DNA from: Olsenella porci
GTDB lineage: Bacteria > Actinomycetota > Coriobacteriia > Coriobacteriales > Atopobiaceae
Length of the DNA: 64,000 bases
Reading direction: 5' to 3'
Assembly (NCBI RefSeq): GCF_009695875.1
Contig: NZ_VUNC01000004.1
Location: 62,001 to 126,000 of the forward strand
Below, in pieces: positions 4,794 through 63,526 of the stretch (its first letter is position 1; the number at the start of each line of letters is the position of its first letter). The notes below the pieces were generated by a model. That model worked only from the letters and a program-made list of their open reading frames with translations, was not told where the DNA came from and ran no database searches. The translations under genes were made by a program, and so were the position numbers.

Positions 4794-7055
4794 ATGAGTA
4801 ACGTCAGAGCTGCGGAATCCGGCCGCAGGGCCCACAAGGGGTCGAAGAGCGCCGGGATACCCCTCTCGGCGGGGATGATCCTCGTCACGCTGGGCGTGGT
4901 GTACGGGGACATCGGCACCAGCCCAATGTACACCCTCAAGGCCATCATGTCCGACAACGGCGGGCTCACGACCATGGGAGACGACACGGTAATTGGCGCG
5001 CTCTCCCTTCTCATCTGGACGATCACCCTCATAACCACGGTGAAGTACGTCCTGGTGGCCATGAAGGCGGACAACCACAACGAGGGCGGTATCTTCGCCC
5101 TCTACAGCCTAGTTAAGCGCTGCGCCAAGTGGCTGATCGTCCCCGCCATGATCGGCGGCGCTGCACTTCTCGCCGACGGCATCCTGACCCCTGCCGTCAC
5201 CGTGACCACCGCCATCGAGGGCCTACGCACCATCGGCCCGGTGTACTCGGTCATCGGGGACAACCAGCAGATCGTGATCGTGATCACCATCGTGATTCTG
5301 TGCATCCTGTTTGGCATGCAGCGCGCGGGCACCTCGACCATCGGCAGGCTCTTTGGCCCGGTAATGACCGTGTGGTTCCTCTACCTGGGCATCACGGGGC
5401 TCCTCAACGTGGGCGGCAACCTCAACGTGTTCCGTGCGCTAAACCCCGTGCGCGGCCTTACTTTCCTGTTTGACCACAGGATCAACGCCGCCGGCCTCAT
5501 GGTCCTGGGCAACGTGTTCCTGTGCACCACCGGCGCCGAGGCACTGTACTCCGACATGGGCCACGTGGGCAAGGCCAACATCTATGCCACCTGGCCGTTC
5601 GTGAAGGCGTGCCTGATCCTTAACTACCTGGGGCAGGGAGCCTGGATCCTGGCCAACCGCAACGTCGCGTCGCTCGCCACCGTGGCGGACCTCAACCCGT
5701 TCTTCCAGATGATCCCCGCGAACCTCCGCGCGCTGGCGGTCATCCTCTCGACCTTTGCCGCCATCATCGCGTCTCAGGCGCTCATCACGGGCTCCTACTC
5801 CATCGTCTCGGAGGCCATCCGCCTGGACCTCATGCCCCACATGAAGATCAACTACCCCTCGCAGACCCGCGGCCAGATCTACATCCCGCTGGTCAACAAC
5901 ATCATGTGGGTGGCCTGCATCTTCGTGGTGCTGTTCTTCCAACGCTCCAGCCACATGGAAGCGGCCTACGGCTTGGCCATCACGGTCACCATGCTTATGA
6001 CCACGCTGCTGCTCTACACGTACCTCTCGCAGATTCGTCACAAGCACGGTGCCGCAATCCTCTTTGTGGTCACGTTCGGGCTCATCGAAGCAATGTTCTT
6101 CTTCTCGTCGCTCACCAAGTTCATGCACGGTGGCTACTTCACCGTCCTCATGGCAACGGCAATCTTCTTCGTCATGTACATCTGGCGCCGCGGCACCGCC
6201 ATCGAGCGCACGCAGACGGTGTACCTGCCCGTGAACAAGTACATCGACCAGCTCCAGCAGCTAAGCCACGACGACAACTACCCCTACATCGCTGACAACC
6301 TGGTGTTCCTCACCAACGACTCGTCGCCCGACAAGCTCGACCGCGACATCCTCTACTCCATCCTGGACAAGCGCCCCAAGCGCGCCAAGGCGTACTACTT
6401 CCTCAACGTCCAGGTGACCAACGACCCGTTCACGCACGAGTACATCGTGAACGACTTTGGCACCAACTTTGTGTTCAAGATTCAGCTGCGCCTGGGATTC
6501 AAGGTCAACCAGCGCGTCAACACCTATCTGTACCAGATTGTCGCCGACCTCATGGCACACCACCAGCTGGCTCCGCAGAACCACAAGTACTCGATCTACC
6601 GTGACCACGGCAACGTGGGCGACTTCCGCTTCTGCCTCATTCGCAAGGTGCTCACCCCCGAGTCTGACATCAGCGGCGGCAACGCCAACGTGATCAACCT
6701 CAAGTACGCCATCCGCCACGTTTGCGGCTCGCCCGCTCGCTGGTATGGCCTTGAGAACTCCAGCCTGATCTTTGAGTACGTACCGCTGTTTGGCAAGACC
6801 AAGCGTCAGCACAGGCTCACGCGCGTCACCGAGCCCTCCGGCACCGGCTCCATGAAGCCCGTCAGCGCCGCCTCCGTGGTGGAGGAGGACGAGGGCGACA
6901 TCTTCTCGGACAAGATGGTCAAGGAGCACTCCGAGGTCATCGAGGCTACCGAGCACGAGGTCGTTGGCGGCGACACCGCAAGCTTCCGTCCCCTCGTGAT
7001 TGACGAGGACGAAGACGAGGACGGGTCGGACTCCACCGAGGAGGGCGAGGAGTAG
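4794..7055 (+). CDS. kup: Low-affinity potassium transporter, Kup family
   Basis: A 753-residue Kup/HAK/KT potassium:proton symporter. The N-terminal signature GVVYGDIGTSPMYTLKAIM begins near residue 37 and is followed by about twelve hydrophobic segments to roughly residue 460. A hydrophilic C-terminal domain follows, ending in a strongly acidic tail (DEDEDEDGSDSTEEGEE). The ATG follows GAAGGAGCG at good spacing. The roughly 240-base upstream gap, shared with the divergent peptidase gene, was examined for a ydaO-type c-di-AMP riboswitch and none was recognised. A strong terminator follows. Confidence 0.96.
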   Translation: MSNVRAAESGRRAHKGSKSAGIPLSAGMILVTLGVVYGDIGTSPMYTLKAIMSDNGGLTTMGDDTVIGALSLLIWTITLITTVKYVLVAMKADNHNEGGIFALYSLVKRCAKWLIVPAMIGGAALLADGILTPAVTVTTAIEGLRTIGPVYSVIGDNQQIVIVITIVILCILFGMQRAGTSTIGRLFGPVMTVWFLYLGITGLLNVGGNLNVFRALNPVRGLTFLFDHRINAAGLMVLGNVFLCTTGAEALYSDMGHVGKANIYATWPFVKACLILNYLGQGAWILANRNVASLATVADLNPFFQMIPANLRALAVILSTFAAIIASQALITGSYSIVSEAIRLDLMPHMKINYPSQTRGQIYIPLVNNIMWVACIFVVLFFQRSSHMEAAYGLAITVTMLMTTLLLYTYLSQIRHKHGAAILFVVTFGLIEAMFFFSSLTKFMHGGYFTVLMATAIFFVMYIWRRGTAIERTQTVYLPVNKYIDQLQQLSHDDNYPYIADNLVFLTNDSSPDKLDRDILYSILDKRPKRAKAYYFLNVQVTNDPFTHEYIVNDFGTNFVFKIQLRLGFKVNQRVNTYLYQIVADLMAHHQLAPQNHKYSIYRDHGNVGDFRFCLIRKVLTPESDISGGNANVINLKYAIRHVCGSPARWYGLENSSLIFEYVPLFGKTKRQHRLTRVTEPSGTGSMKPVSAASVVEEDEGDIFSDKMVKEHSEVIEATEHEVVGGDTASFRPLVIDEDEDEDGSDSTEEGEE

Positions 7056-14700: not shown

Positions 14701-14893
14701 TGCTTAATCCCGCTAGCCCTCACGCGGATTTCCGCACGTTCTGCTTAGCGCCACTAGCCCTCATGGGGATTTGAAGGCCAAATGCTTAATCCTCCTAGCC
14801 CTCGTGTGATTCGGGCAGCGAAAAACCAACCTGAGGCCTAGGACAGCTAAGCACCGCGAGGTCAAATCCCACGAGACCTAGGAAGATTAAGCA
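14701..14893 (+). repeat. Composite repeat, copy 1: five 31-bp units on a 41-bp period (three direct, two inverted)
   Basis: Units lie at 14701-14731, 14742-14772 and 14783-14813 in forward sense, then 14823-14853 and 14864-14893 inverted, separated by 9-10 bases of variable sequence. The forward unit is TGCTTA, six variable bases, CTAGCCCTC, three to four variable bases, GG-ATTT. The ends form the perfect 9-bp terminal inverted repeat TGCTTAATC/GATTAAGCA. Inverted units let unit 3 pair with 4 and 2 with 5, giving a long fold-back. The same five-unit architecture recurs at 63331-63526 on the other strand. No transposase, integrase or cas gene is nearby. It accounts for most of the gene-free stretch 14563-14964. 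Confidence 0.85.
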
Positions 14894-14964: not shown

Positions 14965-15309
14965 TCAGTCAAAGTAGGCCAGATGGATAACGTCTTGGGT
15001 CCCGCTCAACAGGTCATTTATTGTCGGGTAAGGCCCATAGTTCACCATGGTCAACCCGTACTCGTTCCACTCGCGCTCCAGGTTCGCGCGACGCCTATCA
15101 AGCAGTTCCGCCTTGTGTTCATGGGCGCGGGAGTTGCAATATCGTTCGCTTGTGTTCTCGCGCTCGAATTCGTGCGCATCCGCGAGGGCATAGCGGATGG
15201 TTCGGAGAATGAGGCTCATTGCCTTTTCCTCGTTGCCGTCCCCCATCTTCGCAAGCTTGTGCGCGTTGCGGTTGCGGGAATCCCATACCCTATCTTTCTT
15301 CGTTGACAT
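14965..15309 (-). CDS. Hypothetical protein, charged, island gene
   Basis: A 114-residue protein I do not recognise. It is rich in charged residues (AHEFERENTSERY, EHKAELLDRRRANLEREWNEYG), probably mostly helical and soluble, with no signal peptide or membrane span. A strong GGGGGGAG precedes the ATG by five bases, so it is probably translated. Its base composition is visibly less GC-rich than the neighbours, which fits a transferred gene. It lies between the composite repeat and a small hydrophobic peptide gene in the island next to tRNA-Phe. Confidence 0.65.
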   Translation of the reverse strand: MSTKKDRVWDSRNRNAHKLAKMGDGNEEKAMSLILRTIRYALADAHEFERENTSERYCNSRAHEHKAELLDRRRANLEREWNEYGLTMVNYGPYPTINDLLSGTQDVIHLAYFD

Positions 15310-15681: not shown

Positions 15682-15705
15682 GTCGCGCGGCGGAGTCCGC
15701 GCGAC
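15682..15705. other. 8-bp-stem hairpin GTCGCGCG/CGCGCGAC
   Basis: A perfect inverted repeat with an 8-base loop sits between the small peptide gene and the HNH fragment. No T-run follows in either direction, so it is reported as a structure rather than a terminator. Confidence 0.4.
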
Positions 15706-15732
15706 TCCGGTCCATGTTGGGGGGTCAGAGCC

Positions 15733-16083
15733 ATGTCCCGACACGGAACCAACCCCCGATACGCCAACGGCAACGCCAGGAGGAAGCTAAGGGCGAGGCT
15801 CAGGGCCATGTACGAGCGCTGCCCCGTCTGCGGGGCGACGCTCGACTGGGACCACCCGTACCTCCCCAACTCCGCCGAGCTCGACGAGATTGTGCCCGTG
15901 TCCAGGCTCCCGGAGGAGCTGAGGCGCAGGGCGTGCCTCGACCCGGACAACGTGCAGGTGCTCTGCCGCGCTCGACGGCGACCGCTCCATGCTCATTGCG
16001 CTAGGCAAGCAGTACCTGGGACAGAACTTCGACTCCACGATCTTCCACCTGCCGTGCCGGGGAGGGGTGACAATGCGCTATGA
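15733..16083 (+). pseudogene. HNH endonuclease, 3' part replaced (chimeric remnant)
   Basis: The first ~80 residues read as a phage-type HNH nuclease: SRHGTNPRYANGNARRKLRAR, a zinc-type CPVCG, DEIVPVSRLPEELRRR and LDPDNVQVLCR. Exactly where the second zinc knuckle (xCNxxK) should follow, the frame turns into low-quality sequence. In the +1 frame the DNA instead encodes ALDGDRSMLIALGKQYLGQN and on to TMRYE with a stop at 16084-16086, apparently the tail of a different protein. A deletion joining the 5' end of an HNH gene to the 3' end of another gene explains this. The ATG has GGGGGG eight bases upstream. Nuclease activity is unlikely. Confidence 0.7.
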
Positions 16084-16141
16084 GTAACGCACGTTAATTG
16101 GTGAGAGGTGCTACGTTTGGGATGAGTTGGGAGGTGCCTTC

Positions 16142-16420
16142 GTGTACGACAGGGAGGACCTGGACTTCGGCCCGACGGTTCTAAGATTGTTGAGGGCGAG
16201 GGGCCTGACCCAGCAGGGGCTGGCCAACTACTCGAGGTTCGGAAAATCCTATATTTCGAGGCTCGTTTCCTCGCGCGAGATACACATGCCGACGGTAGAC
16301 CGCGCCAAGGTAATCGCCGACTACCTTGGCCTATCTCTGCAGGAGCTGTGGGACGAGTACGTCTCTGATACGCGCAAGTCCGACGGTGCCTACAGAGTCC
16401 GTGGCCGACGTCCGCTCTAA
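16142..16420 (+). CDS. XRE-type helix-turn-helix regulator
   Basis: A 92-residue DNA-binding protein with one Cro/CI-type helix-turn-helix: VLRLLRARGLTQQGLANYSR, FGKSYISRLVSS, MPTVDRAKVIADYLGLSLQELW. No second domain is present. The GTG at 16142 follows GGGAGG by seven bases and is preferred to a TTG fifteen bases upstream, which has no ribosome binding site. It sits at the inner end of the island facing the tRNA-Phe 3' end, a usual place for a phage or element regulator; its target is unknown. Confidence 0.82.
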   Translation: MYDREDLDFGPTVLRLLRARGLTQQGLANYSRFGKSYISRLVSSREIHMPTVDRAKVIADYLGLSLQELWDEYVSDTRKSDGAYRVRGRRPL

Positions 16421-16465
16421 AGAAAAGCAGGCCAGAGAACATAGCCTCTGACCTGCACTTTTTCA

Positions 16466-16541
16466 TGGTGGCGGGGAAGGGAATCGAACCCCTGACACGG
16501 GGATTTTCAGTCCCCTGCTCTACCAACTGAGCTACCCAGCC
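16466..16541 (-). tRNA. tRNA-Phe (anticodon GAA), CCA encoded
   Basis: A 76-nt cloverleaf on the reverse strand. D-arm GCTCAGTTGGTAGAGC, anticodon stem GGGGA/TCCCC with loop CTGAAAA (anticodon GAA), T-loop TTCGATT and 3' CCA are all present. The acceptor stem has a U4-C69 mismatch (GGCTGGG against CCCCGCC). The 3' end faces the accessory island at 14.6-16.4 kb, the usual geometry for integration into a tRNA gene. I searched by eye for a duplicated tRNA 3' end at the far side of the island and found none. Confidence 0.96.
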
Positions 16542-63330: not shown

Positions 63331-63526
63331 TGCTTAGTCTTCCCCGACCTCGTGTTGATTTGTCCTCGCGCTGCTAAGCTCCCCCCCCCGGCCTCATGGG
63401 GTTTTCCGTCGCGCTACCCACACGAGGGCTAGCGACATTAAGCATCTGCCTCCGAAATCCGCATGAGGGCTAGCGATGCTAAGCAGCGTGCCCCAAAACC
63501 CACACGGGAGCTAGTGGAGCTAAGCA
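63331..63526 (-). repeat. Composite repeat, copy 2 (inverted relative to copy 1): five 31-bp units on a 41-bp period
   Basis: Units at 63331-63361 and 63372-63404 are in forward sense; those at 63414-63444, 63455-63485 and 63496-63526 are inverted. Read on the reverse strand this is three direct then two inverted units, the same plan as 14701-14893. Unit starts are 41, 42, 41 and 41 bases apart. The gap before the last unit (GCGCGAGGAC on the reverse strand) matches its counterpart CCGCGAGGTC in copy 1, so the whole element is conserved, not just the units. The unit at 63372 has a run of nine C in place of CTAG and the one at 63331 has CCCG. Confidence 0.85.

What the first reader, a model, noticed from the sequence alone, without database searches (positions are those of the whole stretch)
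14701..14893. Undescribed-looking composite repeat: five 31-bp units, 41-bp period, three direct plus two inverted
Seen directly: five copies of a 31-bp unit (TGCTTA, variable, CTAGCCCTC, variable, GGATTT) start 40-41 bp apart, the last two flipped, with a 9-bp perfect terminal inverted repeat. 41 bp is about four helical turns, so all units face the same side of the DNA. Inverted units allow a nested fold-back (3 with 4, 2 with 5) in RNA or as a cruciform. I know of no named element with this plan. It could be a non-autonomous mobile element (MITE/BIME-like), a nucleoid or regulator binding array, or a structured RNA. No transposase, RAYT, integrase or cas gene is adjacent.
Basis: partly seen in the sequence, partly recalled or inferred. 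Interest (0 to 1): 0.85.

Follow-up and report, generated by a model that had tools for sequence, protein, structure and literature searches.

The report
Private helically phased intergenic DNA arrays
This bacterium carries about 31 copies of a between-gene DNA array in which up to seven 31-letter signposts stand 41 letters apart and all point to the middle; related genera carry arrays of the same build with completely different signposts, which suggests an undescribed class of DNA-protein landing platforms.

Summary
The window array (14701-14893) is one of about 31 in its genome (118 pattern hits, 0 in the control). In all 31, forward units precede reverse units (P about 1e-16 under random orientation). 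The pitch is 41 bp and the central gap 7-9 bp. Nearly all are intergenic, enriched between convergent genes and scarce between divergent ones. A second array lies in this window (63331-63526).

The motif TGCTTARCNNCNCTAGSCCTCRTGYGGATTT is absent from the other 139 family genomes searched and from 84,980 species genomes. The architecture is not private. Genus g24 has 24-26 alternating arrays of another unit on an exact 41/82-bp lattice. Genus g26 has convergent arrays of a third unit, pitch 31/32/41/42. Within g26 the motif differs between species and array copies are young, so arrays disperse.

Facing units show no covariation, single units do not fold, and no RAYT gene exists in this genome. 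I read the arrays as helically phased DNA sites for an unidentified, rapidly changing DNA-binding protein, spread like a non-autonomous BIME/MITE. RNA, cruciform, REP, CRISPR and regulon readings are not supported. The protein and the function are inferred.

The parts
14701..14731 (+). unit F3 (outer forward unit), TGCTTAATCCCGCTAGCCCTCACGCGGATTT
   Evidence: PWM 41.6 bits
14742..14772 (+). unit F2, pitch 41
   Evidence: 46.0 bits
14783..14813 (+). unit F1 (innermost forward); 3' block diverged, of the central-unit subtype also seen in L055, L052, L061 and L046
   Evidence: (32.1 bits)
14814..14822 (.). central 9-bp gap between the facing 3' ends
14823..14853 (-). unit R1 (innermost reverse)
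   Evidence: 36.7 bits
14863..14893 (-). unit R2 (outer reverse), pitch 40
   Evidence: 32.0 bits
63331..63361 (+). second array in the window: outer forward unit of the variant with TCCCC instead of CTAG
   Evidence: L048:4862, 26.9 bits
63372..63402 (+). degenerate forward unit on the lattice slot (TGCTAAGCTCCCC...), approximate limits
   Evidence: sequence in the 52-bp gap of L048
63414..63444 (-). second array: innermost reverse unit
   Evidence: 36.5 bits
63455..63485 (-). second array: reverse unit, the best-scoring of the genome
   Evidence: 49.4 bits
63496..63526 (-). second array: outer reverse unit
   Evidence: 34.5 bits
14221..14562 (+). left neighbour: acylphosphatase gene; the array starts 139 bp after its stop
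   Evidence: PF00708, E 5e-17
14965..15309 (-). right neighbour: 114-aa protein without Pfam match; convergent with the left neighbour

Best explanation
The element is a dispersed extragenic DNA array. Each 31-bp unit is an asymmetric recognition site with three conserved blocks roughly one helical turn apart. Units are set about a whole number of helical turns apart (31, 41-42, 82 bp), so an unidentified sequence-specific protein, probably an oligomer, can bind neighbouring units cooperatively on one face of the DNA, with two oppositely oriented protein rows meeting at the centre. Arrays arise by copying to new intergenic sites, as a non-autonomous BIME/MITE-like element would (inferred from G081/G082, where copies are young), and in this genome are then held at the motif while spacers drift. 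The protein's specificity, or the protein itself, changes from genus to genus. The likely effect is architectural, or a transcription barrier at gene ends, rather than control of a regulon. Shown: anatomy, copy number, orientation grammar, location, motif privacy, shared lattice in other genera, dispersal and empty sites in G081, motif conservation against spacer drift. Inferred: the bound protein, cooperativity, the function, the transfer mechanism.
For: 118 motif hits, control 0. 31 of 31 arrays are forward-then-reverse, P about 10^-15.9 under random orientation; same-strand neighbours are 41 bp apart in 56 of 64 pairs. Conserved positions are 87% identical between arrays while spacers and positions 7-12 sit at the expectation for independent positions (0.327 vs 0.332; 0.386 vs 0.391): with variable and conserved positions interleaved within one unit, this points to selection on the motif at DNA level. 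Flanking genes are unrelated housekeeping genes. Arrays are over-represented between convergent genes (11/31 vs 12/111, p 0.002) and under-represented between divergent ones (1/31 vs 28/111, p 0.004). Lag analysis blind to the motif finds 41/82 in G000 and 82 in G023. G023: 133 hits of its own motif, 24 arrays of three or more units, alternating, 82-bp repeat. G081/G082: convergent arrays of a third motif, drifted between the two species, pitch 31/32/41/42; G081 copies up to 96% identical; 532 bp with array against 128/135 bp in G025/G023 at one orthologous site.
Against: No binding protein has been found, and no expression or footprint data exist here. Central pairs do fold better than shuffled sequence (mean z -3.2; whole arrays -5.2), as any inverted repeat would, so a hairpin role is not excluded. 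Units in G000 keep some shared ancestry (67 identical 6-mer pairs against 21.6 expected; excess of similar units), so part of the motif conservation could be due to copying. Pitch is not one single value across genera, and G023 arrays alternate rather than converge.
Confidence: 0.6

Rival explanations
1. Purely selfish non-autonomous element (MITE/BIME-like): units are binding or cleavage sites of a transposase acting in trans, with no host function; arrays in G000 are old copies.
For: Dispersed young copies in G081/G082, empty orthologous sites, species-level motif turnover, extragenic location, avoidance of promoter regions.
Against: In G000 the motif stays at 87% while interleaved positions are random, which neutral decay of dead copies does not give. 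Copies end at unit edges with varying unit number rather than at fixed termini. No flanking sequence is shared between arrays. No cognate transposase was found; no Y1 transposase in G000 or G023.
Confidence: 0.25
2. Structured RNA or cruciform: facing units form long hairpins that terminate or stabilise transcripts.
For: Arrays lie at gene ends; inverted units fold (z -3.2 for the central pair, -5.2 whole array).
Against: 0 of 12 predicted pairs has a compensatory change; facing units are no more alike at variable positions than units from different arrays in G000 (0.365 vs 0.382) or G023 (0.458/0.495 vs 0.489). Single units do not fold (z 0.01). Same-strand units at fixed helical pitch have no role in a hairpin. 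No Rfam match, no terminator-like site in the window region.
Confidence: 0.08
3. Classical REP/BIME with a RAYT transposase.
For: Extragenic, tens of loci, species-specific sequence, composite orientation, IS110 insertions into units as known for REPs (PMC1525189).
Against: Unit not palindromic, no terminal GTAG/CGTC tag, no Y1_Tnp (PF01797) in G000 or G023, inter-unit distance fixed rather than variable as reported for BIMEs (PMC2817692).
Confidence: 0.04
4. Regulator binding sites of one regulon.
For: Asymmetric, conserved sites in intergenic DNA.
Against: Neighbours are unrelated (enolase, gltX, ffh, mfd, metK, queA, acylphosphatase) and arrays avoid divergent promoter regions.
Confidence: 0.03

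Closest known systems
BIME / REP (repetitive extragenic palindromes with RAYT transposases; PMC2817692, PMC3733652)
   Same: Extragenic, tens to hundreds of units per genome, species-specific sequence, units in composite arrays with inverted orientation, thought to bind proteins and to be dispersed; IS elements insert into them (PMC1525189).
   Different: Units here are not palindromic, lack the end tags, have fixed helical pitch, are convergent in G000/G081, and no RAYT-type transposase is in G000 or G023.
MITEs (non-autonomous transposable elements; own knowledge)
   Same: Short, gene-less, dispersed copies with overall inverted symmetry; empty orthologous sites.
   Different: No constant terminal repeats or full-length copies in G000; variable unit number; motif kept while spacers drift; no target duplication shown.
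Arrays of transposase sites at Mu/Tn7 ends, and plasmid iterons (own knowledge)
   Same: Repeated asymmetric 20-30 bp sites at helical spacing, bound cooperatively.
   Different: About 31 chromosomal loci with no cargo, no replication gene and no cognate transposase nearby.
Intergenic TAACTGA direct repeats of Beggiatoaceae (PMC4679880)
   Same: Many intergenic sets of direct repeats with unknown binding protein.
   Different: Heptamers close to start codons and proposed to act in translation; no inverted half, no 41-bp lattice.

Membership tests
REP/BIME | unit is an imperfect palindrome | tested here: not met
   mean fold z of 97 units 0.01
REP/BIME | cognate RAYT (Y1_Tnp) gene in the genome | tested here: not met
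   PF01797: none in G000 and G023; a fragment in G081 and a broken copy in G082
REP/BIME | GTAG or CGTC tag at one end of the unit (PMC3733652) | tested here: not met
   unit ends are TGCTTA and GGATTT
REP/BIME | extragenic, species-specific, composite clusters | tested here: met
MITE | homologous dispersed copies | tested here: met
   G081 copies up to 96% identical; in G000 only traces
MITE | constant terminal inverted repeats and target-site duplication | tested here: inconclusive
   flanks share nothing; ends vary by whole units; no close strain to map insertion points
CRISPR array | direct repeats with unique spacers of 25-40 bp and cas genes | tested here: not met
   10-bp spacers, inverted half, no cas among the flanking genes scanned
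structured RNA family | Rfam match or compensatory base pairs | tested here: not met
protein-binding array | a protein binds the units | not testable with these tools
   needs pull-down or ChIP
protein-binding array | motif conserved against drifting neighbours, spacing in whole helical turns | tested here: met
   41/82 in G023, 31/32/41/42 in G081

The most novel reading that the evidence does not exclude
A coriobacterial class of extragenic platforms in which a fast-evolving DNA-binding protein and tens of helically phased arrays co-evolve, so that each genus, and even species within g26, has a private recognition sequence while the lattice is kept: a bacterial analogue of rapidly turning-over centromere- or boundary-type sites.
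Probability: 0.3. Interest if true: 0.9.

Novelty: new variant of a known kind. Interest (0 to 1): 0.72.

Why it matters
If right, Coriobacteria hold an unrecorded class of genome-wide DNA platforms whose geometry is conserved while the sequence turns over between genera. That gives a direct handle on an unknown DNA-binding protein and on why bacteria keep such extragenic arrays. It also shows how to find such systems: by lattice (lag) analysis, since search by sequence similarity cannot see them across genera.

Tried and rejected
Rfam search of the array: nothing. Exact motif in 84,980 species genomes, in viral contigs, and array BLAST against phages and plasmids: nothing. Profile of the four central units against 140 family genomes: only the own genome. 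Pattern in 60 relatives: single chance-like hits. Hairpin/covariation test in G000 and G023: negative. RAYT: absent from G000 and G023. IS110 as mobiliser: the elements in G081 are insertions into units; the third G081 copy and the G000 copy have no units beside them. The de novo scan also flagged coding repeats (e.g. L109, L131), rejected as codon-periodic; lags that are multiples of 3 were left out for this reason. Distribution along the G023 chromosome: the origin could not be placed (weak GC skew, no dnaA among the long ORFs at the contig start), so no claim. One shared array interval between G000 (L044) and G023 (L102, his genes) may be coincidence.

Full report
Observation. The 193-bp block is real: five 31-bp units at 14701, 14742, 14783 (+) and 14823, 14863 (-). 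It lies 139 bp downstream of an acylphosphatase gene and 72 bp from the end of a convergent 114-aa gene of unknown family. In the window the motif has 10 hits against 1.78 expected.

Genome-wide family. The pattern with up to 3 mismatches has 118 hits in the 2.36-Mb genome and none for the reversed control. A weight matrix on 31 extracted loci gives 147 units including weak ones (122 above 20 bits). Consensus TGCTTARCNNCNCTAGSCCTCRTGYGGATTT. All 31 arrays read forward-then-reverse; under random orientation P is about 10^-15.9. Same-strand neighbours are 41 bp apart in 56 of 64 pairs. The central gap is 7-9 bp. Innermost units often lose the GGATT block on one side; outer ones lose the CTAG block (TTCYC variant), and decayed units continue outward on the lattice.

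Location. 28 of 31 arrays lie wholly between called genes; the other three overlap the edge of a called gene, one of them at a called start that may be wrong. They are enriched between convergent genes (11/31 vs 12/111) and scarce between divergent ones (1/31 vs 28/111). G023 shows the same tendency (8 of 23 convergent against 26 of 193 intergenic intervals; pooled p 5e-5 and 0.005, where the G023 background was reduced by an estimated number of array intervals). Gene calls are my own codon-usage calls, not a curated annotation. Neighbours are unrelated housekeeping genes.

DNA, not RNA. Facing units are not more alike at variable positions than units of different arrays (0.365 vs 0.382); no predicted pair shows a compensatory change. 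Between arrays, conserved positions are 87% identical, while positions 7-12 and spacers sit at the expectation for independence. Because variable and conserved positions interleave within 31 bp, I infer selection on the motif as a DNA site. Residual ancestry exists: repeated 6-mers (67 identical pairs vs 21.6) and a shared central-unit subtype, for example the window's F1 with the innermost reverse unit of L055.

Private motif, shared lattice. The motif is absent from the other 139 family genomes by profile and from 84,980 species genomes by exact pattern; the genus holds one genome. A motif-blind scan of relatives found the same geometry with other sequences. G023 (genus g24): TCACANWANYTNNCCWSNCRTCCA, 133 hits in G023 and only single chance-like hits in two other family genomes; alternating arrays, mostly of 6-8 units, 39-40/42-43 bp, 82 per same-strand repeat. 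G081 (genus g26): nnCAGCGCARAANNNNNTCGAGGGCGYGA, 61 hits, convergent arrays with pitch 31/32/41/42 and a 6-bp centre. G082, same genus: at least 40 hits of a drifted, nearly uniform form CGGCGCAAAACCCGGTCGAGTGCGGGA, pitch mostly 31/42. G025, same genus: no G081 motif, one small possible array of another unit at 31-bp pitch (L121:4898-5057). Pitches are close to whole helical turns (3, 4, 8).

Dispersal. G081 arrays are mostly 78-96% identical to each other over 150-300 bp, spacers included, and end at unit edges with varying unit number. One G081 array interval is 532 bp where G025 and G023 have 128 and 135 bp. Three G000 array loci have compact array-free counterparts in G023. So arrays are gained at new intergenic sites; how is unknown. 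Two G081 arrays carry an IS110-family element inserted within a unit, which parallels IS insertion into REPs (PMC1525189).

Interpretation. I favour a helically phased binding array for an unidentified protein, dispersed like a BIME/MITE and maintained. REP membership fails on palindrome, tag and RAYT. The papers found on bacterial extragenic repeats (PMC2817692, PMC3733652, PMC4679880) do not describe this plan in what I read of them, and the library held is limited to open papers. The protein, the function and the transfer mechanism are not shown.

Noticed in passing
L213:4298-5977 and L217:5224-6892 (G081): A 1.7-kb IS110-family element (383-aa DEDD/Transposase_20 protein) is inserted within array units in two of its three G081 copies; arrays may be preferred targets of it.
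   Followed up: partly
L045:2109-2341 (own genome C9 about 249658-249890): Another palindromic repeat class (CGTGTGTACACACGCG with flanking TTTCTGCCA), three copies 104 and 73 bp apart; G023 has similar CGTGCACACG...TTTCAAAACGTG pairs at lag 61 (L105, L106, L118).
   Followed up: no
L045:1690-1806 (own genome C9): Large inverted repeat of 55-56 bp arms with TCCCGTAAG...CTTACGGGA ends, 62-bp repeat.
   Followed up: no
L046:5121-5995: A 347-bp segment beside an array is duplicated 530 bp downstream at 98% identity; two array units reappear at 5579 and 5620.
   Followed up: no
L140:1497-1684 (G036) and L172:15900-16110 (G113): Further inverted intergenic repeats with private sequences (GTGTGGGTGCTAATC; GTGCCCCGC...GAGTGACGAGAA with 73-bp lag), possibly the same class in genera g7 and g4.
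   Followed up: partly
L121:4898-5057 (G025): Small convergent array of TTYGGTCRCCCRAATCG units at 31-bp pitch in a species that lacks the motif of its congener G081.
   Followed up: partly
window 15700-16541: HNH-type and Xre-type small genes beside tRNA-Phe, looking like a small island near the array (read from ORF translations only).
   Followed up: no
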